Source: Xanthomonas hortorum pv. pelargonii (GTDB lineage Bacteria; Pseudomonadota; Gammaproteobacteria; Xanthomonadales; Xanthomonadaceae). Taken from it: a DNA stretch of 64,000 nt. Below are positions 2,468 to 19,503 of this stretch, piece after piece. Location: contig NZ_CP098604.1 in NCBI RefSeq assembly GCF_024499015.1, forward strand, positions 1,798,001 to 1,862,000. Reading direction: 5' to 3'. Under the pieces are notes generated by a model. That model had not been told where the DNA came from and ran no database searches. It worked only from the letters and a program-made list of their open reading frames with translations. Each line of letters begins with the position of its first letter. The first letter of the stretch is position 1. Position numbers and translations under genes: made by a program.

Positions 2468-4381
2468 TTGTCCGATCATCCTTCTTCCGATACCGGGAGC
2501 GTCGACGCTCCTGTCGAGAAACGCGTGCGCAAGCCGCGCGTGAGCAAGACCGCCGTTGCCAATGACGACGGTGGCGCGCAACAGCCCAACCTGCCCTTGC
2601 CCGCCAGCCCCGCGCCTGATGTTCCGCGTGCGCCGCAGGCACCGTCGCACGCTGCCGATTCGGCACCGGCGCAGACGTCCAGCGATGGCGCATATGCCGG
2701 TAACGCCCCCAGCGCCAGTCATGGCAATCAAGGCAACCAGGGCGGCGACAACCATGGCGAATCCCGCGAAGGTGGCCAGTCGCAGCAGCAGCGCTTCAAC
2801 CAGGCGCAGAACCAGCAGAACCAGAATCAGGCGCAAAGCCGGGGTCAAGGCCAGAACCAGGGTCAAGCCCAGGTCCAGGGCCAGCCGCAAAATCAAGGTC
2901 AGGGTCAGGACCAAGGTCAGAACGCCGGCCAGAATCAGCAAGGTCAGAGCCAGGGGCAGAACCAGCAGGGCAATCGCCGTGACCGGTTCCGCAACCGCCG
3001 CGACCGTGGGCCGCGCGATCGGTTCGGTAATGAAACCGGTGGCGGCATGCCGTCGTCCGATGGCAGCAACGAGCCGTTTATCGCGCGTCCGCACCCGGCC
3101 GTGCCGGATGGCTTCCCGGTGTATTCGCTGAGCGATCTCAAGCGGATGCCGGCGCAGAAGCTGCTGGATATCGCCGATCAGCTCAACATCCAGGAAGGCG
3201 TGGCGCGTGCGCGCAAGCAGGACGTGATCTTCGCCCTGCTCAAGGTGCTGACCCGCCACGGCGAAGGCGTTGCCGCCGACGGCGTGCTGGAAATCCTGCC
3301 CGACGGCTTCGGTTTCCTGCGTGCCGCCGAAGCCAGCTACCTGGCCGGCCCGGACGATACGTATATCTCGCCCAGCCAGATCCGCCGCTTCAACCTGCGC
3401 ACCGGCGACCATCTGTCCGGCCGCATCCGCTTCCCGAAGGACGGCGAACGCTATTTCGCGCTGTCGATCGTCGACACCATCAACGGCGAACCGCTGGAAG
3501 CCAGCAAGAACAAGGTGCTGTTCGAGAACCTGACCCCGCTGTTCCCGCGCCGGCGTTTCCGTCTGGAGCGTGGCGATGGGTCCACCGAGGACATCACCGG
3601 CCGCATCCTGGATCTGATGGCGCCGCAGGGTAAGGGTCAGCGTGCGCTGATCGTCTCCCCGCCCAAGGCCGGTAAGACGATGATGATGCAGCAGGTGGCC
3701 ACGGCCATCACCAGCAATCATCCCGAAGTGCACATGATCGTGTTGCTGATCGACGAGCGCCCGGAAGAAGTGACCGAAATGCAGCGCACCGTGCGCGGCG
3801 AGGTCATCTCTTCCACGTTCGACGAACCGGCTGCGCGTCACGTGCAGGTTGCCGAGATGGTGATCGAGCGGGCCAAGCGCCTGGTCGAGCACAAGAAGGA
3901 CGTGGTGATCCTGCTCGACTCGATCACCCGTCTGGCGCGCGCCTACAACAACGTGGTGCCCAGTTCCGGCAAGGTGCTCACCGGTGGTGTGGACGCCAAC
4001 GCGTTGCATCGCCCGAAGCGCTTCTTCGGTGCGGCCCGTAATGTCGAAGAAGGCGGCTCGCTGACCATCATCGCCACGGCGCTGGTCGAGACCGGCAGCA
4101 AGATGGACGAAGTGATCTACGAAGAATTCAAGGGCACCGGCAACAGCGAAGTGCATTTGAACCGTCGTATCACCGAAAAGCGCGTTTACCCGGCGATCGA
4201 CATCAACCGTTCGGGTACGCGTCGCGAAGATCTGTTGATCGAGCCGGAGCTGCTGCAGAAGATCTGGATTCTGCGCAAGCTGCTGCACCCGATGGACGAA
4301 ATCGCAGCGATGGAATTCCTGCTGGACAAGATGAAGACCACCAAGTCCAACGACGAGTTCTTCAGTTCGATGAAGCGCTGA
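2468..4381 (+). CDS. rho: transcription termination factor Rho with long Q/N/G-rich N-terminal insertion
   Basis: Hexameric RNA-dependent ATPase that terminates transcription. 637 residues, versus about 420 for E. coli Rho; the excess is N-terminal. Residues 1-85 are basic and Ala/Pro-rich, about 86-169 are almost only Q, N and G with some S, about 170-186 are Arg-rich ([10 protein letters not shown]), and a canonical Rho follows. The primary RNA-binding fold has DGFGFLR; the P-loop is PPKAGKT with K403; Walker B is [16 protein letters not shown]. The start is a TTG with GAGGA about 9 bases upstream; no ATG fits the conserved frame better. The 220-bp leader is C/T-rich, which would suit the Rho autoregulation known in enterobacteria, but I see no proof here. 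A strong intrinsic terminator follows. Confidence 0.97.
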
Positions 4382-4404
4382 TTTCGATCGGCATTCTCGA
4401 TAAG

Positions 4405-4432
4405 AAAAAGCCCCGCATTGCGGGGCTTTTTT
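4405..4432 (+). terminator. intrinsic terminator of rho
   Basis: A GC-rich hairpin AAGCCCCGC-ATT-GCGGGGCTT is followed directly by a T-run, 24 bases after the rho stop codon. The A-run before the stem would also give a T-run on the other strand, so it may work in both directions. Confidence 0.93.
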
Positions 4433-4478
4433 GTGGGTGCGCGATTGCTTGCAGTCACAAGCCTGGTTGGCCGAGTGC

Positions 4479-4586
4479 GCGGTGCCCTCACCGCTCACGG
4501 GACACGCCGTGAATCCGTCCATGGAGGCTCGGTGGCGGCATCCATGCCGCCACACGGTCCCGCAATCGGTAAGGACACCGCACCAG
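4479..4586 (+). repeat. palindromic repeat, module A, copy 1
   Basis: About 108 bp bounded by near-complementary arms of about 25 bases (GCGGTGCCCTCACCGCT... and ...CGGTAAGGACACCGC) with an inner perfect hairpin TGGCGGCAT-CC-ATGCCGCCA. The same module recurs at 36990, 37389 and 53119, the first two in the opposite orientation. It lies between the rho terminator and module B. No coding potential is supported. Confidence 0.85.
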
Positions 4587-4619
4587 AAAGTTTGCTGACT
4601 GCTTTGTTGAAAACCATGC

Positions 4620-4752
4620 GCACCGACCATCTCAATTGGTCATTGCCCGCCCACCGTCGCGGGACCTTACGCGGCATGGATGCCGCGTAAGAGCCTACAT
4701 GGACGTACTTGCGGCGTGTCCTGCGATGGTGGGCGGGCAAGGGCCCTGCAGC
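4620..4752 (+). repeat. palindromic repeat, module B, copy 1
   Basis: Outer arms TTGCCCGCCCACCGTCGCGGG and its imperfect complement flank an inner hairpin TTACGCGGCAT-GG-ATGCCGCGTAA. The inner core is the reverse complement of the module A core. Followed by GGGCCCTGCAGC. Copies lie at 4826, 36801, 37200, 37595 and 53268. Confidence 0.85.
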
Positions 4753-5086: not shown

Positions 5087-5971
5087 TTAACTTCCTTGCA
5101 GCGGTGTCACCAAGCGCACACCTACTCCGCGTGCCGAGAACAATCCACTTCCAGGTAGCGCATCCGGACTGTCGGTCGATGCTGACGCACCGCGCTGTTC
5201 GTGCCAGGGCGCCGGCTGACGTGGGCCCGGCAAATAGGATTGCCACGTTTTGGCTTGCTTTGCAGCGGTCAGATTGCCTGGCCAGGTTTCGATGTCGAAG
5301 GTGACCGGAACCCGCATGACCCAGTACGGCGCGTCGGCCTCGACGCCTTGCGTTGGCGGCTCAAATGTCCAGCGCTGCGCCTTGGCGATTGCGGCATCGG
5401 CAAACGCCTTGCGCCAGCGCGGGCGCTTCGATTCCGGCGCTAGCGTGGTCAGGTTGACCTGCTCTGCAACCAGATCCTCGACCTTGCCATCGCGCCCGAT
5501 CTTGAGCAGCAGATACACCACCCCTGTCGCACCTTCTCGAAACGCATGCTCGGGATAGGCGGGCGGCGGCATGTCTTTGGCAGCAACGCTGGCTGCACCT
5601 TGCTCCTGGCTGCCGAAATGCGCGCTGCGAATCGATACCGCATACGTGTTGTTGTCGCCCGGCTTGGCGACCAGCAGCAGATTCATCGGTAGTTGCGCGG
5701 GCAATGCGCTTCCATCGTCTTTGACAGGGTCGAAGCGCCAGGAGGCGATCGATTGCTTGACGCGGTCGCGGACCACTGGCGGCAAGCTTGCTTCGTCGGT
5801 GAGCTTGACCGCCGTGACAGTGCCGTCCGGGGTCAGCGTCAATTCGCCCGCGACATTCATGCTGGCCTCCATCTGCGCCTGCACCTGCGCGGCACTGGGA
5901 CGTGCCTGCACGCCGTTGATACTCGCCATTGCCAGCAAAATCCCCAGGCCCAAGCGTTGCTTCCACTGCAT
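5087..5971 (-). CDS. exported TonB C-terminal-domain-like protein
   Basis: 294 residues starting MQWKQRLGLGILLAMASI, a cleavable signal peptide ending near VQA. The middle part (YPEHAFREGATGVVYLLLKIGRDGKVEDL...WRKAFADAAIAKAQRWTFEPP) has the look of a TonB C-terminal fold: a YP start, G-V-V strand, DG-V turn, and A-A...W-F-P end. Such stand-alone secreted copies are common in Xanthomonas and usually of unknown role, with no N-terminal TonB membrane anchor. The start at 5971 has GGAG 9 bases upstream; the longer open frame has no ribosome site. It follows the cytochrome gene by 180 bp, so co-transcription with the oxidase operon is uncertain. Confidence 0.7.
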   Translation of the reverse strand: MQWKQRLGLGILLAMASINGVQARPSAAQVQAQMEASMNVAGELTLTPDGTVTAVKLTDEASLPPVVRDRVKQSIASWRFDPVKDDGSALPAQLPMNLLLVAKPGDNNTYAVSIRSAHFGSQEQGAASVAAKDMPPPAYPEHAFREGATGVVYLLLKIGRDGKVEDLVAEQVNLTTLAPESKRPRWRKAFADAAIAKAQRWTFEPPTQGVEADAPYWVMRVPVTFDIETWPGNLTAAKQAKTWQSYLPGPRQPAPWHEQRGASASTDSPDALPGSGLFSARGVGVRLVTPLQGS

Positions 5972-6151
5972 GACCGCGCTCCATCGTGATTGAATCTTCG
6001 TTGTACCAGCCTTGGTGCATACGCGTAAATCCTGGACCAGGTTTATCCGTTTCTCCGTCGGTAACGGCGGCGTGCCGGGGTGCTTGAATGCCTGCGACGC
6101 GACTGCGCAGTTGCGATACACCGACAGCAGATGGAGGTACGCGCACACGCC

Positions 6152-7453
6152 TCAGCGCTGCAGCAAATGGACGTGCGCGATCTGCGCGGCATCGGACGAT
6201 TCGGCAGTCAGCACTGTTGCGCCTTGCGTGAGTCGGATCGTCTGCAATTGCGGTTGCAGGCGACGCAGCGGGTCGAGTTGCGCCAGCAGATCGCAGGCCG
6301 CCGATGCCCATGCGGCAGCCGGCCCGATCCAGCGACCATCGGCAGCGACCGGATTGTAGGGATAGGCCACGATCCAGCGCCCGGCGCCGGAGGGTGCAGT
6401 GACGACCGTGGGATCTGGTGCGTACATCGCGGGTGCCAGCTGCAACATGGACGTTGGCTGTGCGGAGATGTCGTGATCGGCCGCGACAGGGCGCAGCCAC
6501 AGCCTGGCGGATTCATCGGAGTGCCAGGGACGCAGCGTCAAACCTGTGCGCGGTGCCAGTGCAACCACTTGGCGATACAGCTGCGCGCTGAGTGGATCGT
6601 CGGGATCGTAGGTGATCGCAAGGCTGCGATGGCCACGCGCCTGCGCCACGTCGAGCAGGCGTGCCAGCTGTGCCTGTACGCCGGGAAATGCGTAATCCCA
6701 GCGCGCGCCCTGCGGTGCGTCCAGCATGGAGAACGGCAGCGCAGTGACGATGTTGCGACCATGCATCAGATCGGCGTACGTCTGTTCCCAGCCGGCGATA
6801 AACGGTGCCAGCAATAAGGTGTCGCGCGATGGATGCAGCTGCGACTGCAATAGCTCGGCGGCCTCTTCGGGCGTATCGAAAGACACCACGTCGAAGGCGG
6901 CCAGGCGCCCGGTTTCTGCAGGACGACAGCTGCGCAGCGCATCGTGCAATGCATCGGCAATCGGCTGACGGCCCGGGCGCGGCAACAGCAGTGCGATGCG
7001 CAACGAAGCATCGCGCTGCGCAACCGGATGCGACAGCTGCTGCAGATAGGCCAGCAAGGCCTGCACTTCGTCGTCGGCCAGTGCGACGCGCGGCATGATC
7101 GGGTCCAGACGGCGACCGTCCGGCGCGCTGCCGGCGCGCACCGCATGCGCCAATGCATCCACGTCGTAGCGAGTCAATGGCGCATCGGCGCGACGTGCGG
7201 GGAACCGCGCCGATAGTTGCGACCACCGAATATCCGGCGCACGCACGAAGCCCTCGGATTTACCGCGGCCGTCGTCGCCATGACAGCCGGCGCAGCCGTG
7301 CACGCCGAGGCCGGCGACGTTGCGTCCGTCGCGCCCGATGCCGGTTGCATACAGCGACCGGCCAAGCTCGGCTGGCGGCGCGCCCTGGGCAAATGCAGCC
7401 GCCGCCGCACACGCGCACGCGGTGAGCAACCAGGCGTAAAGGCGGCGGTGCAT
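6152..7453 (-). CDS. exported cytochrome c fused to a periplasmic-binding-protein-like domain
   Basis: 433 residues. MHRRLYAWLLTACACAAAAAFAQG is a signal peptide. Residues about 28-135 form a class I cytochrome c with one haem site, CAGCH (C54, C57, H58), and a probable axial Met in DPIMPRV. From about 150 (LRIALLLPRPGRQPIADAL) to the end, the alternating strand/helix pattern looks like a type 1 periplasmic binding fold as in branched-chain amino-acid or ABC substrate-binding proteins; this half is assigned by pattern only. It is the last gene of the oxidase unit, 10 bp after the SCO gene. Likely job: pass electrons from the oxidase, with the second domain sensing or binding a ligand; the ligand is unknown. 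Confidence 0.75.
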   Translation of the reverse strand: MHRRLYAWLLTACACAAAAAFAQGAPPAELGRSLYATGIGRDGRNVAGLGVHGCAGCHGDDGRGKSEGFVRAPDIRWSQLSARFPARRADAPLTRYDVDALAHAVRAGSAPDGRRLDPIMPRVALADDEVQALLAYLQQLSHPVAQRDASLRIALLLPRPGRQPIADALHDALRSCRPAETGRLAAFDVVSFDTPEEAAELLQSQLHPSRDTLLLAPFIAGWEQTYADLMHGRNIVTALPFSMLDAPQGARWDYAFPGVQAQLARLLDVAQARGHRSLAITYDPDDPLSAQLYRQVVALAPRTGLTLRPWHSDESARLWLRPVAADHDISAQPTSMLQLAPAMYAPDPTVVTAPSGAGRWIVAYPYNPVAADGRWIGPAAAWASAACDLLAQLDPLRRLQPQLQTIRLTQGATVLTAESSDAAQIAHVHLLQR

Positions 7454-7463
7454 CGGCGTGCGC

Positions 7464-8039
7464 TCAGGCTTCGTCGGCAAGCCGCAGCAGATCCAGCGCG
7501 ATCCGCTCCGCCGGCGCATCCGGACGCAGCTTGAGCCAATGCTGGCGCCCGGCACGCCCGGCGATCAGCAGCGTGCTGTGGCTCTCGGGCTCGCCACTCC
7601 ATTGGCCCAGCTTGCCGAGCACCTGCTGCATCGTCTCGGGGGCGGCGACGACAAAGCGCCAACCATCTACGTCGGCGCCATATTTTGCAGCGAAGGCTTT
7701 CATCGATTGCGGGGTATCGCGCTTGGGATCGATCGACAGCGACAGAAAGCGCACGTCCTTGCCGAAACGCTCGCCCAGCTGCCGGCGCACCTGCTGCAGC
7801 ATCTGCGTCTGCATCGGGCAGGCGTTGGGGCAGTTGGTAAACACCAGGTTGACCAGCACCACGCCTTCGCTCAACAGATCGGTATAAAAGCGGTGGCCGA
7901 CGCCGTTTTGGTCAACCAGGGTGTCGTCGCCGAAGTAATCGCGTGCGCGCGTCTCGGGCGCGCCGGTGGAGGTGCCGCGTGCAGCAGCCAATGCCGGCCA
8001 CGCCAGTACCAGCGCCAGACACAAGCGCCGCCGCTTCAT
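7464..8039 (-). CDS. SCO1/SenC-family copper chaperone or thiol oxidoreductase, second of the pair
   Basis: 191 residues, signal peptide MKRRRLCLALVLAWPALAAA. Thioredoxin-like SCO fold with the CxxxC copper site NCPNACP, a downstream ligand His in ESHSTLLI, and the family segment FLSLSIDPKRDTP. SCO proteins deliver or reduce copper at cuproenzymes outside the cytoplasm. The ATG overlaps the stop of the preceding SCO gene (ATGA), so the two are translationally coupled. In this operon the natural client is the giant multicopper oxidase; this is inference from context. Confidence 0.88.
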   Translation of the reverse strand: MKRRRLCLALVLAWPALAAARGTSTGAPETRARDYFGDDTLVDQNGVGHRFYTDLLSEGVVLVNLVFTNCPNACPMQTQMLQQVRRQLGERFGKDVRFLSLSIDPKRDTPQSMKAFAAKYGADVDGWRFVVAAPETMQQVLGKLGQWSGEPESHSTLLIAGRAGRQHWLKLRPDAPAERIALDLLRLADEA

Positions 8040-8665
8040 GGCGCACCTCGCGCGCCGGCATCGGTCGCCAGCGCATCGACGGCGGCCAGTAATCGCGCCG
8101 GCTCGGGCATGCCGACCCATCGCCACCAGCGTCCCTGGCGCGCATCGCCGACCAGCATCACCGGGCCGTGGTCTTCCGGTCGACCACCGACCGGCAGCCC
8201 GAAGCCGCGCAAGACCCGGTCGATATCGGAAGGCGTGCCGGTGAGCCAGTACCAGCGCTCGCCAGCGCGTACGCGCCGACTGAAATCGAGCAGTTGCGCG
8301 GGGGTGTCGTGGCGCGGGTCCAGGGTGATCGAAATCAGCGTGACCTTGCCGCGCGGCCGCAGCGCCAGCTCGCGCTGCACGCTGCCCATCACGGCGGTGA
8401 GCGCCGGACAGATGGTGGTGCAGCGGGTGTACATGAAATCGACCACCACGATGCCTTCCTGCAGCAGCGGTTGCAGATCGTGAGGCTGACCGTGGGCGTC
8501 CAGCAACGCCACTTCCGGCACCTGCACCTCGGTGGGACTGGCGGCCAGGGTCTGCGCCTGTGCCATGCGGTGATGGGCAGCGTGCGGGCCGTGCTGGGCC
8601 GCAGCCGCCACGGCAGTGGAAGACAGCAGCATCAGGCCGCAGGCCGAGAGCAGGAACATGCGCAT
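8036..8665 (-). CDS. SCO1/SenC-family copper chaperone or thiol oxidoreductase, first of the pair
   Basis: 209 residues with signal peptide MRMFLLSACGLMLLSSTAVAAAA, a short His-rich stretch after it (QHGPHAAHHRM), then the SCO fold: RCTTICP (CxxxC), SITLDPRHDTP and EDHGPVMLVGD with the third copper ligand. The His-rich start could add metal binding. Its ATG directly follows the stop of the propeller gene (TAA then ATG), and it overlaps the next SCO gene by four bases. A second ATG six bases inside is possible. Two SCO copies side by side suggest separate copper-loading and thiol-reducing roles, not shown by sequence. Confidence 0.88.
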   Translation of the reverse strand: MRMFLLSACGLMLLSSTAVAAAAQHGPHAAHHRMAQAQTLAASPTEVQVPEVALLDAHGQPHDLQPLLQEGIVVVDFMYTRCTTICPALTAVMGSVQRELALRPRGKVTLISITLDPRHDTPAQLLDFSRRVRAGERWYWLTGTPSDIDRVLRGFGLPVGGRPEDHGPVMLVGDARQGRWWRWVGMPEPARLLAAVDALATDAGARGAP

Positions 8666-10600
8666 TTAGTTGGCTCCTTGCAAAACGGTGGGCTCACGAA
8701 CGAACAAGGTGGCAAAAACCAGCTGCACCGGCGTGGCTGCGTCCAGATAGGCGTAGTAACCGCCGCTGGCCTGCAACGCACCGTGCGCGACCCAGACCCC
8801 TGGCTGCGCAGTGTCCGGATGCATTGGCCAGGTGGCGGTGACGTTGCCGTTGGCCATGACGATGCGCAGCCGCAATGGCTGGCCGGCGATGCGGGCGGCG
8901 GCCTGCGCATCGCGCGCGGCAACCCGCAATGCGAAACGTTCGCCTGGCGCCAACGAGCGCGTCGAATCGCCTTCCCAGCGCATCGCCACCTGCGCAGGCC
9001 CCGCTACAGGCGCGGCGGCGGCGACCTGCAGGCCGATGCATTCCTGCACCTTGGGCAGGGCGCTGGCGATGGCCATCACCATCTGCCCGGCGGCGGGCAG
9101 GCGCACGATGGCGGTGTATTCGCCCACACCGGTCTGGCGCAGACCGCGAAGCGCGAGCAGTGCCGCCATCGGCGTATGCCCGTAGGTGCGCACGCCCGCA
9201 TCCGGCGCGTTCATGCCTTCCATGTAGTGATACAGCGTGCGCTCGGCAGGAGTGGCGATGAAGGCGCCGTTGCCCTCGTAGCTTTCGGCCATGCTGGAGG
9301 CGCGCGGCAACTCCGCACTGGCCGAGGGCGCGGCGGCACCGGCGGGTACGAATTTCAAAAACGGCGCGGCGGTGTCCAGGCTGGCCAGCGACAACAATGC
9401 GACCTGCTCGCTGTCCAGCGCGCGCACATAGGCGTATTGCGCGGAGAAGGCGATGTCGTATGGCCGCCCGGAAATGGTGATGGCATGCCGCAGCGCACCG
9501 CTGCCTGCATCGTGGGCGAGCAGGCGATGCTGCACGGGATTGGCCAGCAGCACATGGCGGGCATCCGGGGTGAGCCGGGCCGGGCCGCTGCCCCGCTCCA
9601 CCACGCGCGTGTCCACCGCTTCGCCGTCGCGGCTATAGCGCCAGATGCGCCCGGCGCGGGCGCTCACCACCCACAGCAAGCCATTGCCGGGGGCGAACAG
9701 CACCGCGGATGGTTCGTCGTCCAAAGACAGCCGGCGCACGATCGCCAGGCTGTCGGTGTCGACAATCGCCAGCGCGCGCCCTTCGCGACTGCTGACATAG
9801 GCCAGGCGGCCATCTTCGGAAAACGCGATTTCGTGATGCCCGGCCGGCAGTGGCAACTGCGCCACGATGCGTGCCTCCACGGTGTCGAATACATCCACGC
9901 CGCTATCGCCGGCCTCGCCGACGCGGCCGATCCACAACAGGCGTTCGCCCGGCTGCAACGCCAACCGCGTGGGGCGGCCCTGCAACGCGACATGCGCGAG
10001 TGTCTTCAGGCCTTGGACATCGAGCACGGCGAGTTTGCGTGCCTCCGGCAAGGCCACGTACAGCCGCGCATCGTCGCTGGTCTTGACCCAATCGAAGCCG
10101 CGCCCTTCCAACCGCATTGCGGCCAGCAGACTGGTGCGTCCGCTGAAACTGACCGCCGGGTCCAGCACCGAGACGCTGGGTTCGGCATCCAGACTGAGCA
10201 GGTAGTAGCCGGTCATATCGAGCAAGGGGCGCTGCAACAGATTGGCGCTGAGAAAACCGGCGATGCGCTGGTGGCAGACCGGCACCGCGCCGGACAGCGG
10301 ATCGGTGGCCCGATCCAGCCAGGCACCCGGCGCCCAGTTGTTCAATGGCTGCCCATCGGCCAACCGCCTGGCATCGATACGCAGCCGCAGTTGCTGCCCG
10401 GCGACCGGCTGCCCCGGTGCGCCCGGCTCCAGCGCTTCCAGGCGCAGACGCAAGCCCACGCCTTCCGCTTCCAATGCCCGATCCAGATAGACCGGCGTCG
10501 GCGGTTTGGGCGGCGGCGCGGCCAACGCCAGCGCGCACAGCAGCAGCCCGGCGAGTGCACCGCCTGTTCGCAGACTCCGGCGCGGGCGCGGCGGTGCCAT
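8666..10600 (-). CDS. secreted YVTN/WD-type beta-propeller protein of the oxidase operon
   Basis: 644 residues, signal peptide ending near ALALAAPPP. From about residue 150 to 430 there are repeated blades of the LxVLDvxGLKTLAHVAL / DGRLAYVSSREGRALAIVDTDSLAIVRRL type, i.e. a seven-ish-bladed YVTN or cytochrome-d1-like propeller; no haem motif is seen. The C-terminal part (about 430-644) is a beta-rich segment with a conserved-looking HYMEGMNAP...RTYGHTPM stretch and may be an immunoglobulin-like domain. ATG 10600 overlaps the oxidase TGA by one base (TGATG). Likely a periplasmic or outer-surface partner of the oxidase; its function is not known. Confidence 0.75.
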   Translation of the reverse strand: MAPPRPRRSLRTGGALAGLLLCALALAAPPPKPPTPVYLDRALEAEGVGLRLRLEALEPGAPGQPVAGQQLRLRIDARRLADGQPLNNWAPGAWLDRATDPLSGAVPVCHQRIAGFLSANLLQRPLLDMTGYYLLSLDAEPSVSVLDPAVSFSGRTSLLAAMRLEGRGFDWVKTSDDARLYVALPEARKLAVLDVQGLKTLAHVALQGRPTRLALQPGERLLWIGRVGEAGDSGVDVFDTVEARIVAQLPLPAGHHEIAFSEDGRLAYVSSREGRALAIVDTDSLAIVRRLSLDDEPSAVLFAPGNGLLWVVSARAGRIWRYSRDGEAVDTRVVERGSGPARLTPDARHVLLANPVQHRLLAHDAGSGALRHAITISGRPYDIAFSAQYAYVRALDSEQVALLSLASLDTAAPFLKFVPAGAAAPSASAELPRASSMAESYEGNGAFIATPAERTLYHYMEGMNAPDAGVRTYGHTPMAALLALRGLRQTGVGEYTAIVRLPAAGQMVMAIASALPKVQECIGLQVAAAAPVAGPAQVAMRWEGDSTRSLAPGERFALRVAARDAQAAARIAGQPLRLRIVMANGNVTATWPMHPDTAQPGVWVAHGALQASGGYYAYLDAATPVQLVFATLFVREPTVLQGAN

Positions 10601-13600
10601 CAGCGGCAATCGCGGCGTAACGGTGCAGCCGGATACGTCGCTGCCGCCGCCTGCACCCGCACGATCGCCCACAGCCCGTTGGTGATGCCGAAGCCGCCGT
10701 GGTCGCGCCACAGGTAATCGCCGGTGACGCCGGCTTGCCCACCGGCCTTGGGCAACACGATGTCGAAGTGCGACAGCGGGGTGACGCTCTCCTGCCCGCC
10801 CATCGCCATCTGGGTCGGGTTGTCGCCGATGCACTGCGATGGCACGCCCCAGTCGGCCGGCTTGCCGCCTTGCGGGAATCCCGCTGCGGTGACGCGCTCG
10901 GCCAGGTACGGGTCGCGCGGCCAGCTGTGGCCGTGCAGCTCGACCACCGAGGCGCGGCCGACGCCGGTCGGCATCAGGCTGCGCAAGCGGGTTTCTTCGC
11001 CTGCGTAGGCCAGCAGCACGGGCACGAACGGTTCGCCGACGTTGGCTTGCGCCGTCGTGGCACCGTTGCCGCAGCACTGATTGTCGAACGCCTGCCAGGC
11101 CTCATCGATGCCACCCAGTCCATCGCCGCCGAACGGCGCATCCGGTGCGATGCCGAAGCGGAACCACATCGGTTCGCTGCCGTAGTTGATCGCCATATGC
11201 CCGGAGTCGTGCGCATCCTCCGGCGCGGTGCGCAGCGGATCTTCGTTGGCGTCCACGCGTTCTGCAGCGATGTTCTGTACCGCCTTGCCATCGGCGTAGC
11301 GCAGGTTCAGACCTTTCTGATGGACCAGGGCCAGATCGCGGAAGCTGCGATTCTGGGTGGCCCCCGCCGCATCGACGATGCGGTAACTGACATCGGCGGT
11401 GGCACGGCTGCGGGTCTGCGGAAAGCTGGCCGATGCCGGGTCCTGGCGATTGCGCATGCGGTCGTCGCTGTACTCGCGCCAGCGCGCGCCCTTGGGCTCG
11501 ATCACCAGCGCGCCTACTGCCGCCTTCTGGCCCTGCTTGATCCGGTCCGGCGGGGTCAGGTTGCTGCCGCCGAACTCGACGCCGACATAGCGGCAGGCCT
11601 TGGCCGACAACGCGACCAGCTCGGTGCTGTCCAGGGTCAGATCCGGATAGCGCAGCTCGCGCCAGGCGTAGGCGCGCCTGGCGCCGGAAGGATCGTTGGC
11701 GGCGCTGTCCACGCCCTCGACTTCGTAGCGGAAACTGGCGGTGATGCGCGCGGTCAAGACGTCGGCTTCTTCGCGGGGTTTTTCCTGCAGCAAACGCTCC
11801 AACACCACCTGGCGCAGCGCAGGATCGGCGACGCATTTGCCACGCGTGTCGGCCAGGCGTTCGCGATACAGATATGCGTCGCCGTCGAGCAGTGCCGCTT
11901 CGTCGAGCTGCGCATCGGCGCCTTCCTTGGGGTCGCGCAACGCCGGTGGCGCGGCATAGGCGCGCAGTGCCTCGCCGGCCAGCGGTTTGCCGTCCGGCAC
12001 GCTCTCCAGGCAGGCCTGTACGGGCGCCTGGCGCAGCAGATCGCTGGCAAGGGCACGCGAGCGCTCGTTGGCACTGCCCTCCAGCGCATAACCTGGTTCG
12101 AGCGCGCTGAGCACCACGTCCTCGAATGCGGCGGCGGTCATCAGCTCGGTCAACGGGCGCAGGTTCGGCTCGCGTGCGAACTGGCTGAGCAGGTCCAGAA
12201 ACGGCGCCTTGTCGCCTGCGTAGATCGGGCATAGCCCGGCCGAGGGCAGCGTGTCGATCACCCCGGCATACCACTGATAGACCTTGCTCCAGTTCGGCGA
12301 AATGGTGCTGATCTTGTTGGTGCCGACATTGTTGCCGTCGTAGGACTGCACGTCGTAATGCACCAGTTGCGGATGCAGACCGACACGGTTGGAGGCGTGC
12401 ACGAGGTTGTTGTTGAACGACTGCATGCTCGAGCTACCGCTGCCGGCCGAGCGCCGCACCGTGCCGGACATCGAGGTATAGCCCTCCAGATCCGGCATGC
12501 CGGCGCGCGCGCGCGGCAGGCGGTTGTGCAGCACCACCTGCAGGCACTCGCCGGCGGATGCGCGCAGCACCAGTGGTTCGACGGGGCGATCGGGCCGCAG
12601 CATGCCCTTGGCATCGAGATCCTCGTTGCGCACGAACAGGATGGCGGAGGGATCGTGCAGCGGCCCACTGCCGTAGCGTTGCGTGGTGACCACGCCCTTG
12701 TCGTCGGTCGTCTTCAAGGTGATCTCGGTGGCGCGCGGGTTGTAGACCAGCGTGCCGCCACGCGGGTTGAGCCGGCTGCCGGCCAGGCCTGCTGGAATCG
12801 TCACGCCCAACGCGTTGCCGAGCGCGGTATTGGCCAGCACCGCAGCGACGTGATACCGCCGCACCGGCGCATTGATCGGGCAATCGTTGAACAGCCCGCG
12901 CCCCTGTTGCGGGGCCAGCAAGGCCGGGCGCAGCTGGCTGGGCAAGGCGACTAGCCGGTCGCTACGCACATCGCGGCGGTTGTGGCTGCGCAACACGCCC
13001 CACACCCCGCTCCACAAGCCGTCCTGGCTGCTGTCGATGGTGTACATGCGGTCGTTGAGATGGGTGGCGCTTTCGTAATCGGTGATCCGCGCCGAGAAGG
13101 TGAACTGCTCGGACAACCCGGCGTTCTGGCTGTTGCGCCAGCCCGAGTGCGGCGCCTGGCCGAAACCGGAGCCGCCCTGCATCCACGCCATGCCGTTGAT
13201 GGAGGCGTTGTGTTCGTGCTCGTGCGCGCCGGCCTGGATTTTCACCCGCACCAGATCGCCGGAATAGGCGCGCAGGATCGGCGTATACGGATCGCCGGCC
13301 AGGCGACGCGCGTTGACGTCGGCGGGATAGTGCGGGCTGCTGCCGGCCAGCGACGGATCTTCGCCGCCGATGCCGTTGAGCACACTGATCGCGCGGTCGG
13401 TGCGGGTCTGCAGCGCGAACGCCAGATCGCCGCGGTAGCTGTCGGCCTGCGCGCCGGACTTGCCATCGGCCGCCGTGGCGCTGGGGTTGTACACGCGCAA
13501 GCCGAGCGGCTCGTTACGATAGTTCACCACCATCATGCCTACGTCGTCGGCCGAGATCGCCTCCGGACACGGCCGCAGCGGTGCGGTGCCGGGCACATAC

Positions 13601-16600
13601 ACCGCGCCCGGCAAGCCGGTGTCGCCACCGGGGCAGCGCGGCTCGTAGGCGACGATATCCGGCAACACGGGCGAAGCGGGTTTGCGCACCGATGGATGAA
13701 TCGCCTGGCGGAAACTGTTGGCCGTGGGCAGCGCCGAGGCATCGATGGTGGATGGCACGCCCTTGCTGGTAACGCCGTAGAAATAGCCCTTTTGATAGGC
13801 GTGCTGGAAATCGCCGAATTGCAGGAAGAACTCGCGGTGCGCGTCGTCGCGGCCATCGCCATCGCTGTCCAGCGGCTTGCCGCCCTTGTCCGTGATCACC
13901 GCCTGCCAGGAGGTCGGGCCACCGTCCATGCGCGTGGCCGCGTCGTACAACACCTTGCCGGTTTCGTTGTGCCGCCATAGCGCACCGGGCGGCTCGGTGA
14001 GCATGGTGGCGTAGAGCCCGAGCTGTTGATGCGTGGAGGGGCCAAGATGGTCGTGGGTGAAGGTGATGCCCAGGCCGCGATGCACGCCCTGCGCATTGAC
14101 CAGCGGGTCAGAGAACCAGCGCTGCAACGTCGTGCGTGCACCCAGCCAGTCGCAGGCGCCGGGGAATCCATAGCTGTGTTCGAATTTTTCGAAATCGCCT
14201 ACAAGTGCGCGCCAACGCGCTTCGCAATCGGCATATTGATGCCCGGTCAATGTGCCGAAATACGGATGCGAACTCGGCACCAGGGGCGCCTGCGTGCCGT
14301 CGTAGGGGTTGACCACGTCCGGCCGCCCCGCCGCGCGTTGCGCCTCGTTCCAGGCGTTGACCGCGTGGATGCGCTCGCGCACCGCACCGGGCGAAAACGT
14401 GCCGTCTTCGTAGTTCCAACCATTGGCGCTGCCATCGGCCGAGGTCAGGTCCCACTTGGGCAGGTGAATATGCTGGCCGATGACATCGGTCGGCGTGGTG
14501 ATCTGGTAATCGTCGGCATAGAAATCCTTCGGCACCAGGTTGGTGTGCGCGTACATCGCGCAATCGAAGGTGTTCATGCGCAGCACCAGCGGCTCGGGCG
14601 GGCGGGTCTTGTCGAGAAGCGACGACACGTCTTCCCACAGGGTGAGGATGCGCTGCTGCGGATAGTGATAACCGACCTTGTTGAACACCACGTCCAGTTG
14701 CAGATTGGCGCCGCGATACACGCGTGGGCTGTCGGCGCCGAATTCGATACCGCCAGGCAATGCGGCCGTGGCAGTGATCCAGGCACCGTTGCTGCCACCG
14801 AAAAAACGCCCATCGCCGCCGCGCTTGAGCAAGCTGCCCTGATCGTCGATGCAGGGTTCGTTGTACGGCGCGCCCGGCACCGATGGCGCACCATTGGTGA
14901 TGAAACGCGAGGCGCTGACCGTGCCCGCCATATCCACCGCGTGGGTGGGATGCTCGCGCACCGCATGGAACTTCATCGCGACCTGTTCCAGATCGGTGCC
15001 GGCCTCGGGGTAATACACCGGCTTGGCCAGCTTGATGTGCTTTTCTGCGGTCATGCGATCGAGCTTGGAGTCGGTCACGCCGCCGGCCGAATAGCCGGCC
15101 AGCGCATGCCGTGGAATGCCGCCGTCGTGGCCTGCCACCACACCGGGAATGCTGGACATATCCAGCGGCGGGGTGGTCGGGCGCGAGCCCATCGTGGTTT
15201 CCGCACCGGCCACCCAGAACGGATAGCCGGGATTGCGATCGCGCTGCTGCACGCGCGCCACCGAGCCGTATTGCACGCCATCGACGATGCGCGGTTCCAC
15301 CTGCACCGCCGCCGGCATCACCGCCATGCCCTTGCCCGGTAACGGCACGACTGCGGGAATCGGCGTACCGGCGACAATCTCGCCATCGGGCAAGGCGCGC
15401 GACTGGCTGGCCGGGCGCCCGTTCTGCAAGCCGAACGGCGTTTCATGGAAGCCCGAACGGGTCTGGCTGACCTGCAGCCGCGTGCCCGCTTCGAACACAT
15501 CGTGATTGCGCCACATGTACCACATGCCTTGCGCGAAATGCGGGTAGAAATGGCAGTGGAAAATCGCATCGCCCACGGTCTTGTTGCGATTGCCCGAGCC
15601 GCCGTACGCGATCTCGTAGGTATAGCCGGACCCCGGCCCCAAGCCCTGGGCATCGATGTAGTTGGCGTTGTCGTCGTTGGGATTGAACAACCACTGATGG
15701 TTGTGCAGATGGAAGATGTGCTGTTCCTTGCCGGCATGCAGATTGCGGAACTTGACGAAGTCGCCGATGTAGCTGTGGTGCACGTTGGCCGGATCGTGCG
15801 GGTAGTACGCCTGAGTGGCGCGTTGCTCCTTGGGCTGCACACAATATTTGGCGCGCTGCGCCGCATAGCGCCGGTCGGTGAGATATTCCGGCTGGCACTG
15901 GCTGATCACCAGGTTGGCCGGGTTATCGACCAGCGTGGCGGCATCGCCAACCGCAAACGAAGAGAGAAAGAATTCTTCGTAGGCGCAATCCAGGCAATCC
16001 TGCATCGGGCCCGCCTTGAGCCGGTTGGCGATGATCTCCGCACCAACGCCGCCGGAGCCGTAATTGATCATGAAGCCATCGCGCACGCCATGCAGCGTGT
16101 GCGAGAGATCGGGGTGTTCGAAGAAATACGGAAATGCCTGGGTGGCAGCGTTTTCGTCATGAAAGACCGAGACGAATTCGCGGAACGGCTCCAGCCGATT
16201 CGGTAGCGCGGGATTGCGCTTGCCCTGCCCTTCCAGCGGATAGGTACGCGCAGGAAAACTGCCGTCTTTTTCCGGCCCCACCACAATCGCATTGACCTCG
16301 CCGTGCACCAGGCGTTGCCCTTGCAGCATGTTGAGGATCGGCAGGCCCGCCTTGCCCTCGCGGCACCACACTCCGGCGCTGGCGCAATCGTTGGGGTAGG
16401 TCGCTTCGTAGTTGAGAATCGGTTGCCCGGAGGGCGTGGCACCCACCGTGGCCAGGCGCAGTTCTTCTTCGGTCAATTGCGCGCGGTAGAAACGCGCATT
16501 GAGCGGCTGCACGGTGACCGCAGCAAACAAGCCGACGCCACTGTTGCCGGCACTGCCTTCGCCACCGAACACCGCTCCATCGTTGCCGACCAGATAGGCG

Positions 16601-17376
16601 CCTTCGTGCGGCGCATGAAAGCAGTAGTCGCGGGTCTGTCCGGGCCTGGCCAGGCTGTCTGCATTTGCACCGGTGTTGGAACTGTCGCTGTCGATCGAGC
16701 CGACCAGTTCCAACCCTTGCGGATGGAAGCCGACGACGCGGCTGTCGACTTGATCGTCGATGCGATAGAGCGGCTCGGTGCCCACTGCATCCTTGACCGC
16801 ATGTTCCATTGGATGGTCCACGCCCGGCAGCGGATCCGGGAAGGAATTGAACGGATTCCCCGGCCCCGTTTCTGGCGGGACTGGCGTTAATTCGAGCAGA
16901 TTGGTCAAGCGCACATGCAGATAGCCACCGGCGGCCACTCGCACTACCAACGGACGCGGACGCAGGTCAGGACGCAGCGCGATATCGCGGCTTTGGTTGT
17001 TGGCAACTACGCGTGCAAACAAGGCCTGGCCCTGCGTGGAATAGTCGAGCACCTGGCTGTTGCTGCGGTGAATCAGATCGTGGCGCAACGCGTACATCGC
17101 CCAATTGACGTTCTGCGCGCCAAGGCGGTTGAACACCATCGGGTGGTCGATGGCCACGACATCGGCGAACACGGCCGATTGCGGGCAACTGAACGCGGCG
17201 CGTTGGGTCAGCTGCCCACGTATCCGCTGCAGCGCGCTGTCAGACACGCGCAGGCCTTGATCAAGGCGCAGATCCACACGCTCAAGTGGCCGCGCCGGCT
17301 GCGCCATTGCCATTGCGGCAAGCACACACAGAGCCACGCAAAACAGACAGCGAGACATCGAGGAACGAACATCCAT
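10600..17376 (-). CDS. giant secreted multicopper oxidase, MofA/MnxG (manganese oxidase) type
   Basis: 2258 residues with signal peptide MDVRSSMSRCLFCVALCVLA and cleavage near AMA-QPARP. Four copper motifs can be seen but in permuted order: HIFHLH (HxxHxH, 553-558), HCHFYPHFAQGM (HCHxxxHxxxxM, 607-618, the type 1/type 3 site), THDH (H1108/H1110), HEHEH (1385-1389) and LHGH (H2148/H2150). Size and order match the multi-cupredoxin Mn(II)-oxidase class (MofA of Leptothrix, MnxG of Bacillus/Pseudomonas) and not three-domain laccases such as CopA. Two DSDGDGRDD-like and other acidic loops may bind Ca or Mn. Start at 17376 has GGGAGAA 8 bases upstream. First gene of a tightly packed unit with a propeller, two SCOs and a cytochrome c. 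The substrate could be Mn(II), but this is untested. Confidence 0.88.
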   Translation of the reverse strand: MDVRSSMSRCLFCVALCVLAAMAMAQPARPLERVDLRLDQGLRVSDSALQRIRGQLTQRAAFSCPQSAVFADVVAIDHPMVFNRLGAQNVNWAMYALRHDLIHRSNSQVLDYSTQGQALFARVVANNQSRDIALRPDLRPRPLVVRVAAGGYLHVRLTNLLELTPVPPETGPGNPFNSFPDPLPGVDHPMEHAVKDAVGTEPLYRIDDQVDSRVVGFHPQGLELVGSIDSDSSNTGANADSLARPGQTRDYCFHAPHEGAYLVGNDGAVFGGEGSAGNSGVGLFAAVTVQPLNARFYRAQLTEEELRLATVGATPSGQPILNYEATYPNDCASAGVWCREGKAGLPILNMLQGQRLVHGEVNAIVVGPEKDGSFPARTYPLEGQGKRNPALPNRLEPFREFVSVFHDENAATQAFPYFFEHPDLSHTLHGVRDGFMINYGSGGVGAEIIANRLKAGPMQDCLDCAYEEFFLSSFAVGDAATLVDNPANLVISQCQPEYLTDRRYAAQRAKYCVQPKEQRATQAYYPHDPANVHHSYIGDFVKFRNLHAGKEQHIFHLHNHQWLFNPNDDNANYIDAQGLGPGSGYTYEIAYGGSGNRNKTVGDAIFHCHFYPHFAQGMWYMWRNHDVFEAGTRLQVSQTRSGFHETPFGLQNGRPASQSRALPDGEIVAGTPIPAVVPLPGKGMAVMPAAVQVEPRIVDGVQYGSVARVQQRDRNPGYPFWVAGAETTMGSRPTTPPLDMSSIPGVVAGHDGGIPRHALAGYSAGGVTDSKLDRMTAEKHIKLAKPVYYPEAGTDLEQVAMKFHAVREHPTHAVDMAGTVSASRFITNGAPSVPGAPYNEPCIDDQGSLLKRGGDGRFFGGSNGAWITATAALPGGIEFGADSPRVYRGANLQLDVVFNKVGYHYPQQRILTLWEDVSSLLDKTRPPEPLVLRMNTFDCAMYAHTNLVPKDFYADDYQITTPTDVIGQHIHLPKWDLTSADGSANGWNYEDGTFSPGAVRERIHAVNAWNEAQRAAGRPDVVNPYDGTQAPLVPSSHPYFGTLTGHQYADCEARWRALVGDFEKFEHSYGFPGACDWLGARTTLQRWFSDPLVNAQGVHRGLGITFTHDHLGPSTHQQLGLYATMLTEPPGALWRHNETGKVLYDAATRMDGGPTSWQAVITDKGGKPLDSDGDGRDDAHREFFLQFGDFQHAYQKGYFYGVTSKGVPSTIDASALPTANSFRQAIHPSVRKPASPVLPDIVAYEPRCPGGDTGLPGAVYVPGTAPLRPCPEAISADDVGMMVVNYRNEPLGLRVYNPSATAADGKSGAQADSYRGDLAFALQTRTDRAISVLNGIGGEDPSLAGSSPHYPADVNARRLAGDPYTPILRAYSGDLVRVKIQAGAHEHEHNASINGMAWMQGGSGFGQAPHSGWRNSQNAGLSEQFTFSARITDYESATHLNDRMYTIDSSQDGLWSGVWGVLRSHNRRDVRSDRLVALPSQLRPALLAPQQGRGLFNDCPINAPVRRYHVAAVLANTALGNALGVTIPAGLAGSRLNPRGGTLVYNPRATEITLKTTDDKGVVTTQRYGSGPLHDPSAILFVRNEDLDAKGMLRPDRPVEPLVLRASAGECLQVVLHNRLPRARAGMPDLEGYTSMSGTVRRSAGSGSSSMQSFNNNLVHASNRVGLHPQLVHYDVQSYDGNNVGTNKISTISPNWSKVYQWYAGVIDTLPSAGLCPIYAGDKAPFLDLLSQFAREPNLRPLTELMTAAAFEDVVLSALEPGYALEGSANERSRALASDLLRQAPVQACLESVPDGKPLAGEALRAYAAPPALRDPKEGADAQLDEAALLDGDAYLYRERLADTRGKCVADPALRQVVLERLLQEKPREEADVLTARITASFRYEVEGVDSAANDPSGARRAYAWRELRYPDLTLDSTELVALSAKACRYVGVEFGGSNLTPPDRIKQGQKAAVGALVIEPKGARWREYSDDRMRNRQDPASASFPQTRSRATADVSYRIVDAAGATQNRSFRDLALVHQKGLNLRYADGKAVQNIAAERVDANEDPLRTAPEDAHDSGHMAINYGSEPMWFRFGIAPDAPFGGDGLGGIDEAWQAFDNQCCGNGATTAQANVGEPFVPVLLAYAGEETRLRSLMPTGVGRASVVELHGHSWPRDPYLAERVTAAGFPQGGKPADWGVPSQCIGDNPTQMAMGGQESVTPLSHFDIVLPKAGGQAGVTGDYLWRDHGGFGITNGLWAIVRVQAAAATYPAAPLRRDCR

Positions 17377-17763
17377 CGAGTTCTTCTCCCACGCAAGACT
17401 GCACGAGTTGTCGCGGAGCAAGTCGCTCCGTCAGAGTGATGCACACAGGCAACAACAGCCGCACGAACGTACAGGCATGCACGTCGTCCGGCCGCGCCAG
17501 ACGACGGATTGGTCTAATGCAGAAAGCGTGGTGAGAGGCGTCCGACTGCCTCGAAGTGAACATCCACTGTCGTGCCGATATAGCACAGCCAATCTGAGGT
17601 GCAAACAAGTTTCGGAGCAACGGTCAGCACATTGCAACAGGCCCAAGCGTGTTGCAGCGCACTGTTTGCGATTTTGCACAAACCCGCAGAGATCACTGAT
17701 AAGCGTCTCGGCTAGTCGGGTTCGTTACGTCGCATCGCCATGCATCGGCGATGCAATCGACGC
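17377..17763 (-). promoter_or_regulatory. upstream region of the multicopper oxidase operon with a candidate promoter
   Basis: 387 bp between aceK (stop) and the oxidase start, without a credible gene. On the minus strand TTGCAC (17604-17599) and TATATC (17582-17577) are 16 bp apart and could form a weak sigma-70 promoter, leaving a 200-base leader. No copper- or Mn-responsive palindrome was recognised by eye. Confidence 0.3.
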
Positions 17764-19503
17764 TCAGGCCAGACGGCGCGAGTCCGCGTAGGGCGGCGTG
17801 TCCGGGTAATCGTCTTCGCGCAGTCGCGCTTGCAGATCGCGCCACCATTGCGGCTCGAACAGTTCCGGATGCGTGTGCTTGACCGCTTCCAGCTGAGACG
17901 CCGGCAAGCCCATAAACAGCGCAAAACGCTCGGGAAACACATCGCGTGGGCCGACATGAAACCAGGGCTCGGCGGACATTTGTTCTTCGTAACTGGTGGG
18001 CGTGGGCCAATCGCGGAACGTGCATTCGGTGATCAGGCACAGCTCGTCGTAGTCGTAAAACACCGCACGCTGATGGCGGGTGATGCCGAAGTTTTTCAGC
18101 AGCATGTCGCCGGGAAAGATGTTGTTGCGCGCCATGTCCTTGATCGCCTGCCCGTAGTCCAGCGCTGCGGCATGCGCGGCCTCGGGCAGTTGTTCGCGCA
18201 GGTATAGATTGAGCGGGCGCAGCCGGCGCTGCACGTAGCACAGCGCGATCAACACATCGGCGCCATCTTCGCTCAGGCTCATCGCACAGCTGGTCTGCAG
18301 TTCTTCCAGCAACGCCGGCGAAAAACGCGCCTTGGGAAAGCGCAGAAAGCGATACGGCTGCGCGTCGAGCAGGCGGCCGATGCGGTCGAGCTGGAACACC
18401 AGTTCGTATTTGCCTTCCACCTGCGCGCGGCTCATGGTTTTTGGATACGCAAAGCGGTCGCGGATCAGCTTGAACACCAGCGGATAACTGGGCAGCGTAA
18501 ACACCACCATGACCATGCCCGGTGTGCCATCGGCATGCACCAGCTGCTCGGCAGGATGCGCCTGGAAATGGCTGAAAAACGTGCGATAACGCTCTGTCTT
18601 GCCCTGCTTTGCACGCCCCAGCATCGTGTACAGCTCGTCGATGGGCTTGTGCGTCAGCAGGCTGCGCAGAAACACCACTGCATCACCGACGGTGGATAGA
18701 TCGGCCTGGAAATAACTGCGCGAGTTACTGAACAATTGCGCGACATCGCTACGCCGGGTCAGCACCGCTTCGGCACGCAGGCCGGCGCCATCGTTGACCA
18801 GTGCGATCACGCAGGGAGAAAAGCGATGTTCGCCGAAAACGCGCCCGATCAGATAGGCGCGCCGTTCGCGGTAGAACACCGTCTCCAGCAGCTCCACACT
18901 GCGCACAGGATGCTCGCCCCAGTGCGCAAGATCGTCCTGCAGCCGCACTGCAATTGCCGCCGCGCAACGGGTGCGGTGCAGGTACGGCACATCGAACGCA
19001 TAATCGCCAAGCACGCGCACCAGCATGTCGGTCAGCCGGCCGGGCGAGACCGCGTAGGTATGCCGCGCAACCGGCAGCGTGATCGCATCGGTCGGCTCGA
19101 TATCCAGCGCGATGAATTCGATCTCCGCATCCACACCATGGGTGCCGAAGTAACGCCGGGTCAGGGTGTTGTAAAAGGTCTTGTACAGCTCCTGATCGAT
19201 CAACCCGGTCAGCAGCGCGGCGTAATGCTCGCGTGCGCGCATCCACAACACGCGGTCGTGCGCCTGCCCCAGCAAGACCGCACGCAGCCGCAGCATGCAT
19301 TCGCTGATGTATTGATCGTAGAGCGCAATACGCGCCACCGCATCCTCGCGCGCGCCGTTCCAGTCGCGTGTCTCGAAACGCTGTTTGGCACGTGCGGTGA
19401 TCTGCGCAAAGCGCGCGTGGTAATCCTCGAAGGCTTCGTACACGGCGCTGCCGATCGCCAGCGCGCGACGCTCGGACTGCGGCGATAACGGAAGAGGGCT
19501 CAT
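17764..19503 (-). CDS. aceK: isocitrate dehydrogenase kinase/phosphatase AceK
   Basis: Bifunctional enzyme that phosphorylates and dephosphorylates isocitrate dehydrogenase to divert carbon to the glyoxylate shunt. 579 residues, the usual length. The regulatory N-terminal half starts [21 protein letters not shown]; the kinase-like half has the P-loop-like [27 protein letters not shown] and the catalytic end [25 protein letters not shown]. The start at 19503 has only a weak ribosome site but fits the family N-terminus. No aceA/aceB lies next to it; the nearest TCA gene is monomeric icd 3 kb away, on the same strand, which is not the usual AceK substrate type. Confidence 0.96.

What the first reader, a model, noticed from the sequence alone, without database searches (positions are those of the whole stretch)
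6152..17376. Compact operon around a 2258-residue multicopper oxidase of the Mn-oxidase class
Five genes on the minus strand, three of the four junctions overlapping or abutting, run giant oxidase, propeller, SCO, SCO, cytochrome c. The oxidase carries permuted copper motifs (HxxHxH at 553-558, HCHxxxHxxxxM at 607-618, HDH at 1108, HEHEH at 1385, HGH at 2148), the layout known for MofA and MnxG, not for laccases or CopA. Copper insertion (SCO) and electron removal (cytochrome c) are encoded with it. This looks like a self-contained extracellular metal-oxidation chain in a plant-associated bacterium; its substrate and biological use are unknown to me.
Basis: partly seen in the sequence, partly recalled or inferred. 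Interest (0 to 1): 0.85.

Follow-up and report, generated by a model that had tools for sequence, protein, structure and literature searches.

The report
Acquired manganese-oxidase operon in Xanthomonas
A close relative of the plant pathogen Xanthomonas hortorum carries, as one cleanly inserted block of five genes, a variant of the known mnxG operon with which Pseudomonas putida turns dissolved manganese into manganese oxide; most other Xanthomonas species examined lack it.

Summary
The oxidase belongs to the Pseudomonas putida MnxG family (NCBIfam NF041487, 2094 bits, below the 3100 equivalog cut-off). Oxidase, propeller, SCO, SCO, cytochrome c is the published order of the mnxG operon of P. 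putida GB-1, so the operon type is known. New here: (1) a long-form class: MnxG with a large cysteine-bracketed insert in domain 5, a degenerate binding-protein domain on the cytochrome, and no SurA gene found (8 of 8 long-form loci; 56 of 58 others have one); (2) an 11.7-kb island exactly between aceK and a TonB-domain gene, with clean empty sites in four operon-free relatives; 2 of 35 genomes of the genus have the oxidase. Most likely this is a horizontally acquired Mn(II) oxidase using O2 directly.

The parts
6032..17763 (.). Island (11,732 bp) holding the whole operon and its 387-bp upstream region; present here and in X. hortorum jj2001, absent at the same site in four operon-free genomes of the genus
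   Evidence: in L088, L089, L090 and L104 the sequence runs from the base matching window 6031 to the one matching 17764 with a single G between; and for X. hortorum (L004)
10600..17376 (-). mnxG-like giant multicopper oxidase, 2258 aa; N-terminus looks like a Sec signal by eye
   Evidence: NF041487 2094 bits; 9bxa MnxG; N-termini
15523..15720 (-). Domain 2 copper motifs: H553xxH556xH558 and H607-C608-H609xxxH613xxxxM618 (type 1 site and half of the trinuclear site, assigned by the established motif order)
   Evidence: present in 199 of 199; align to 9bxa 249-360
14464..14472 (-).
   Evidence: present in 199 of 199
14047..14055 (-). Domain 3 copper motif H1108-x-H1110
   Evidence: present in 199 of 199
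13210..13224 (-). HEHEH 1385-1389 in domain 4, not part of the conserved catalytic ligand set
   Evidence: no HCH in domain 4; varies; D2-D4 alignment weak
10927..10935 (-). HGH 2148-2150: degenerate counterpart of the domain-2 motif in domain 6
11572..12261 (-). Long-form insert in domain 5 (residues 1706-1935), bracketed by C1716 and C1928 (each 99% of 111 long forms), otherwise poorly conserved; no Pfam hit, no credible PDB match
8666..10600 (-). YVTN-type beta-propeller protein, 644 aa
   Evidence: Cytochrom_D1 2.2e-06, YNCE 1.7e-05; profile of 13 homologues vs PDB: 1l0q 1e-43, NirF 1.1e-21
8036..8665 (-). SCO1/SenC copper-insertion protein a (CTTIC, later His)
7464..8039 (-). SCO1/SenC copper-insertion protein b (CPNAC, later His)
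6152..7453 (-). Mono-haem cytochrome c (CAGCH) fused to a degenerate periplasmic-binding-protein-like domain
17764..19503 (-). aceK, right flank of the island (its stop codon is the island edge)
5087..5971 (-). TonB_C-domain gene, left flank (core; the listed ORF runs to 6148, past the island edge)

Best explanation
A horizontally acquired, long-form mnxG operon. MnxG is exported, the two SCO proteins help load its copper, and it oxidises Mn(II) outside the cytoplasm to Mn(III/IV) oxide: electrons enter at the type 1 copper of domain 2 (H553, C608, H613, M618) and pass to the trinuclear site between domains 2 and 3 (H556, H558, H607, H609, H969, H971, H1108, H1110), where O2 becomes water. The propeller and the cytochrome/binding-protein fusion are conserved partners of unknown detail, perhaps in assembly or in handling the Mn(III) intermediate. 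Shown by sequence: family, presence of the ligands, gene order, island. Inferred: export, copper loading, Mn(II) as substrate, flow of electrons.
For: NF041487 2094 bits. All 12 ligand residues in 199 of 199 aligned sequences; 79 of these are loci found through the peptide patterns HLHNHQW or HFAQGMW, so H556, H558, H613 and M618 are there partly by selection, but they also stand in all 119 listed homologues found by shared words. The motifs align to the Bacillus MnxG chain 9bxa, except that its residue 340, matching H613, is Ala, and the H1108/H1110 stretch scores weakly. Three two-domain repeats: hhalign D1-D5 99.1%, D4-D6 96.0%, D2-D6 87.8%, D1-D3 79.1%. Same gene order as P. putida GB-1 mnxG and in 66 of the 69 loci with room. 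GB-1 with mnxG and mcoA mutated is used as a non-oxidising strain (passages). Island: one exact empty site in 4 operon-free genomes, and the two flanks within 27 bases in 7 more; oxidase in 2 of 35 genomes of the genus and 5 of 297 sampled from the family; carriers are sisters in the aceK tree; the two Lysobacter loci show no aceK, icd or TonB-gene match at E <= 1e-10 and Lysobacter proteins fall outside the clade of 58 that holds Xanthomonas (support 0.983).
Against: Score below the NCBIfam equivalog cut-off (2094 vs 3100), though two other long-form relatives score alike (2041, 2007.5) and two Pseudomonas proteins pass. No SurA gene found. No strict GG-N10-GC sigma-54 element in the 387 bp upstream and no sigma-70-like promoter by the scan (0 found, 1.8 expected by chance), so expression is unproven. 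D2 and D4 pair only weakly (5.4%). No activity data. No shared repeat of 7 bases or more near the island ends and none of its five genes is an integrase, so the way of transfer is unknown. The sister relation rests on one gene tree without printed support, and inner nodes around the Xanthomonas proteins in the oxidase tree have supports of 0.549 and 0.578.
Confidence: 0.74

Rival explanations
1. The enzyme is a metal or phenol oxidase of another specificity (Fe(II), Cu(I), phenolics), with Mn oxidation absent or incidental.
For: The three long-form proteins scored fall below the MnxG equivalog cut-off; identity to Pseudomonas MnxG is only 48-50% in the best segment; multicopper oxidases are often promiscuous (established knowledge).
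Against: Copper centre and operon partners are those of MnxG; some JGI records name relatives 'manganese oxidase' (an annotation, not a test).
Confidence: 0.17
2. The operon is ancestral to Xanthomonas and was lost in nearly all species, rather than gained in the X. hortorum lineage.
For: Relatives of the operon also occur in Lysobacter and in three other genomes sampled from the same family.
Against: Four operon-free genomes share one exact junction without remnants and seven more have the flanks within 27 bases; carriers are nested among non-carriers in the aceK tree; Lysobacter proteins are not the sister clade and the two Lysobacter loci lack the flanking genes.
Confidence: 0.1
3. The genes are present but silent or non-functional in this bacterium (no regulator, no SurA).
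For: No SurA gene found, no sigma-54 element, no promoter-like site in simple scans.
Against: All five frames are intact, the 12 ligands are kept, and the two carriers keep 96-99% protein identity across the five genes; the other long-form loci lack a SurA hit too.
Confidence: 0.15

Closest known systems
mnxG operon of Pseudomonas putida GB-1 (PputGB1_2447 and five downstream genes)
   Same: Order oxidase, YVTN propeller, SCO, SCO, cytochrome c/binding protein (PMC11409713, passages); same 12 copper ligands in the Pseudomonas loci aligned
   Different: Here no sixth SurA gene; oxidase 2258 aa against 1944 aa for GB-1 (length from PMC3600357), with a domain-5 insert; binding-protein domain degenerate (Peripla_BP_6 found in 2 of 2 Pseudomonas homologues and in 0 of 4 long-form ones including this); 48-50% identity to Pseudomonas loci in the best segment (GB-1 itself not in hand)
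Bacillus MnxG (PDB 9bxa)
   Same: Aligned motifs in domains 2 and 3, best PDB match (2.2e-90)
   Different: 1227 aa; works with MnxE and MnxF (PMC5622069, passages), for which the operon has no extra gene
MofA operon of Leptothrix discophora
   Same: Mn-oxidase-class multicopper oxidase with a cytochrome c gene
   Different: Partners are mofB and mofC, no propeller/SCO/SCO series (PMC8218464, passages); MofA sequence not compared here
McoA of P. putida
   Same: Mn-oxidising multicopper oxidase with a SCO gene after it
   Different: Different operon content; sequence not compared here

Membership tests
MnxG (P. putida type, NF041487 equivalog) | Score above curated cut-off 3100 bits | tested here: not met
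   2094.4 bits; two Pseudomonas proteins 3892.8 and 3860.4, two other long forms 2041 and 2007.5
MnxG (P. putida type, NF041487 equivalog) | Type 1 and trinuclear copper ligands in domains 2 and 3 | tested here: met
   12 of 12 residues present here and in 199 of 199 aligned sequences; geometry not tested
MnxG (P. putida type, NF041487 equivalog) | Six cupredoxin domains | tested here: inconclusive
   Repeat pattern D1/D3/D5 and D2/D6, D4/D6 by hhalign with guessed boundaries; stretches of 9bxa matched in order; structure prediction unavailable
mnxG operon | Propeller, SCO, SCO, cytochrome/binding protein in order | tested here: met
mnxG operon | SurA-domain gene at the end | tested here: not met
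   No tblastn hit of three Pseudomonas SurA-type proteins in the window at 1e-4; the next gene is a TonB_C protein outside the island
mnxG operon | Sigma-54-dependent control by MnxS1/MnxS2/MnxR | tested here: inconclusive
   No strict GG-N10-GC in the 387 bp upstream; regulators not searched for in the genome
MnxG | Mn(II) oxidation | not testable with these tools
   needs a bench assay
Bacillus Mnx complex | MnxE and MnxF partner subunits | tested here: not met
   The operon has five genes with at most 10 bases between them and none is left over for MnxE or MnxF; no sequence comparison with MnxE or MnxF was made
MofA operon | mofB PPIase gene next to the oxidase | tested here: not met
   No PPIase domain among the five genes

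The most novel reading that the evidence does not exclude
A plant-pathogenic Xanthomonas lineage gained manganese biomineralisation in one step, as a self-sufficient five-gene island, and uses it in the plant: Mn oxide formation shields cells from the host's oxidative burst or withholds Mn from the plant. The long-form operon would be a second, SurA-free class of Mn oxidase machinery that has moved between nitrifiers, methanotrophs and Xanthomonadaceae.
Probability: 0.2. Interest if true: 0.75.

Novelty: new variant of a known kind. Interest (0 to 1): 0.48.

Why it matters
Why bacteria oxidise manganese is an open question (PMC11930936: abstract, introduction). P. putida GB-1 has three Mn oxidases, which blurs deletion tests. 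This genome shows one MnxG-family gene and one other match to Cu-oxidase_2 (probably an ordinary copper-resistance oxidase, by inference); McoA was not searched for and the search for MopA-class peroxidases was uninformative. It has close relatives that lack the island at the same site. That gives a natural with/without comparison in plant-associated bacteria and one gene to delete. The long-form class also suggests which partners are dispensable (SurA, an intact binding-protein domain). In P. putida, Mn oxidation raised survival under peroxide (PMC3798386, passages), so a role against plant oxidative defence can be tested.

Tried and rejected
Rejected: MofA-type operon (no PPIase gene); Bacillus Mnx-type complex (no gene left over for MnxE/F); HEHEH and HGH as catalytic copper sites; a close plasmid-borne copy (30 plasmid records matched, all below 60% identity, the top-ranked 37.7%); short repeats marking the island ends (none of 7 bases or more in 60 bases around each junction).

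Led nowhere: Pfam and PDB searches with the insert (no Pfam family; PDB E 0.63 and 2.5). The search for An_peroxidase (MopA class) in the own genome was silent, but so were all 14 control genomes, so it shows nothing. Literature for Mn oxidation in Xanthomonas: 46 papers held three of four terms, 20 listed; 6 papers listed, none opened; 2 papers; 6 papers. Passages seen: PMC9765421 and PMC6396730 (Xanthomonas in the reference list only), PMC10130588 and PMC10608702 (incidental), PMC3798386 (its one mention was not among the passages shown). PMC13039529 and PMC9436591: listing only. Gaeumannomyces with manganese oxidation and virulence: 0 papers. PMC12263811, PMC3600357 and PMC5622069: passages only.

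Rows dropped or biased before counts: L014 (cut by the contig end) and one sequence identical to another were left out of the 199; loci added were not checked for identity with one another, so the 199 are not all distinct. Only the best 120 of 1017 homologues were listed and used. The aceK tree leaves out G008, G011 and G027 (broken aceK matches) and G019, G020 and G029 (no match).
Full report
What is there. The five ORFs lie on the minus strand at the stated coordinates: oxidase 17376..10600 (2258 aa), propeller 10600..8666 (644 aa), SCO-a 8665..8036, SCO-b 8039..7464, cytochrome 7453..6152 (433 aa). The junctions are a 1-base overlap, abutting, a 4-base overlap and a 10-base gap. The N-termini look like Sec signals by eye; no signal predictor was run. 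Both SCO proteins keep CxxxC and a later His. The cytochrome has one haem motif, CAGCH.

Family. The oxidase has no Pfam match at E <= 1 but matches NCBIfam NF041487, 'manganese-oxidizing multicopper oxidase MnxG', at 2094 bits, below the equivalog cut-off of 3100. Two Pseudomonas proteins score 3893 and 3860; two other long-form relatives score 2041 and 2007.5. The best solved structure by sequence is Bacillus MnxG 9bxa (1.2e-63 alone; 2.2e-90 with a 12-sequence profile). In 9bxa the residue matching H613 is Ala at chain position 340; I take this to be an engineered mutant of the type 1 histidine (recalled, from no call).

Copper sites. In an alignment of 199 sequences (window, 79 of the 80 fetched loci, 119 listed homologues), H553, H556, H558, H607, C608, H609, H613, M618, H969, H971, H1108 and H1110 are each present in 199 of 199. 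They are the residues expected for one type 1 and one trinuclear site (assigned by the established motif order of multicopper oxidases). Caveat: the loci were found through the patterns HLHNHQW and HFAQGMW, which contain H556, H558, H613 and M618; the listed homologues were found by shared words and keep these residues too (130 of 130, of which 10 are loci). For HEHEH and HGH: hhalign pairs D4 with D6 (96.0%) and D2 with D6 (87.8%), while D2 with D4 is weak (5.4%); D1 pairs with D5 (99.1%), D1 with D3 (79.1%) and D3 with D5 (66.0%). In the D2-D6 alignment HGH falls on H558 and H560, and the position of the HCH cysteine is Asp; domain 4 has no HCH at all. H1387 is Glu in 71 of 199 and H2148 is Asp in 65 of 199. 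The domain boundaries were my guesses from the 9bxa matches.

The operon is known. PMC11409713 (passages) lists the putative P. putida GB-1 mnxG operon as mnxG, YVTN propeller, SCO1/SenC, SCO1/SenC, substrate-binding protein with a cytochrome c domain, SurA domain. PMC8218464 (passages) reports a similar operon with five further genes in Pseudomonas sp. OF001. Here the first five are present in that order. Of the 80 loci fetched, 69 have at least 5.5 kb after the oxidase, and 66 of these have the full order by tblastn; L036, L057 and L066 do not.

A long-form class. 111 of 199 sequences have at least 150 residues between positions 1706 and 1935, from 166 to 451 residues, mostly 200-350. In the 69 loci L015-L083 the stretch is 20-43 residues, exactly 26 in 61 of them. 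C1716 and C1928 bracket the insert in 99% of the 111, C1789 and C1848 are kept in 77% and 74%, and the rest is poorly conserved (mean majority frequency 0.35 against 0.69 for residues 70-2240). No Pfam family and no credible PDB match was found. In 8 of 8 long-form loci with room no SurA hit follows the cytochrome gene, while 56 of 58 other full-order loci have one (L015 and L016 do not). The test was tblastn with three Pseudomonas proteins at 1e-4, so a diverged SurA could be missed; in L012 the next ORF is an acetyltransferase. Pfam finds Peripla_BP_6 in 2 of 2 Pseudomonas cytochrome homologues and in 0 of 4 long-form ones; profile comparison still links the two C-terminal domains (96.2%, E 2.4e-09 for one comparison). 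I saw no paper that describes this class; my searches bore on it only indirectly. PMC3600357 (passages) lists prokaryotic relatives of 1217 to 2681 aa, so the size range is known.

The island. The closest named relative is Xanthomonas hortorum jj2001 (98%); next, by best segment, come Methylomonas (65%) and Nitrospira, Nitrosomonas and Lysobacter (60-62%; one Nitrospira fragment 66%). In the genus search 2 of 35 genomes have the oxidase: the own genome and G021, whose size and coordinates fit X. hortorum jj2001 (my inference). In the family sample, 5 of 297. In L088, L089, L090 and L104, from four genomes without the oxidase, sequence matching window 6031 joins sequence matching 17764 with one G between; 17764 is the last base of the aceK stop codon. 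In seven more operon-free loci (L095, L096, L097, L099, L102, L107, L108) matches to the TonB-gene flank end at 6009-6014 and lie within 27 bases of the aceK match. In the remaining aceK loci the left flank is diverged, rearranged or not reached. In a 29-sequence aceK tree G000 and G021 are sisters, with G022, G023 and G031 as the next branches (no support values printed). To X. hortorum the DNA is 97.1% identical over a stretch of 14,751 columns that spans aceK, the operon and the TonB gene, and 97.9% over the next 4,008, as expected after one gain and common descent. G+C is 66% in the island against 63-64% outside, a weak sign by itself. No shared repeat of 7 or more bases marks the ends, and no tRNA was found in the window. 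I conclude that this is a horizontal gain in the X. hortorum lineage from an unknown donor.

How it most likely works. In P. putida, MnxG and McoA each support Mn oxidation (introduction read), and the double mutant is used as a non-oxidising strain (passages). With the same copper centre and partners, the window's enzyme most likely oxidises Mn(II) too, with O2 as acceptor. The SCO pair fits copper loading. The cytochrome need not be the electron outlet; its fused binding domain suggests a sensing, assembly or ligand-handling role, which is inference. No strict sigma-54 element was seen upstream and no sigma-70-like site, so control may differ from P. putida, where MnxR is predicted to act with sigma-54 (passage).

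What for. In P. putida, Mn oxidation raised intracellular Mn and survival under peroxide (PMC3798386, title and passages). In a plant pathogen the oxidative burst is an obvious place for this; that is inference. No report of Mn oxidation by Xanthomonas was found in the searches, which cover only an open-licence library and of which I opened a part (see Tried and rejected).

Limits. Activity and expression are untested. The species name of the window's genome is not given by any search.

Noticed in passing
window 20642-22267 (-): Caspase-domain (C14) protein of 541 aa with a 141-bp tandem repeat (3.6 copies, 20760-21268), between aceK and icd; in G021 and G023 the aceK and icd matches lie about 325 bases apart, without it.
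   Followed up: partly
window 36802-37749: 399-bp tandem repeat, 2.4 copies, 91% matches; stretches there resemble the N-terminus of the ORF at 2387-4630.
   Followed up: no
window 2387-4630 (-): 747-aa ORF without Pfam or NCBIfam match and with repeats at 2816-2967; its first ~50 residues recur at 36948-37103, 37347-37502 and 53111-53254.
   Followed up: no
window 38025-39470 (-): 2-oxoadipate dioxygenase/decarboxylase HglS (724.8 bits, above cut-off).
   Followed up: no
window 17764-17790: A few bases of the last aceK codons next to the island edge differ from the four operon-free relatives compared but are the same in X. hortorum, perhaps a scar of the insertion.
   Followed up: partly
L053 and L074 (JARFTX010000034.1 and JARFTX010000015.1): One gammaproteobacterial MAG holds two MnxG-like loci; in L053 the oxidase matches span 5135-17114, more than one gene's length, so there may be two in a row.
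   Followed up: no
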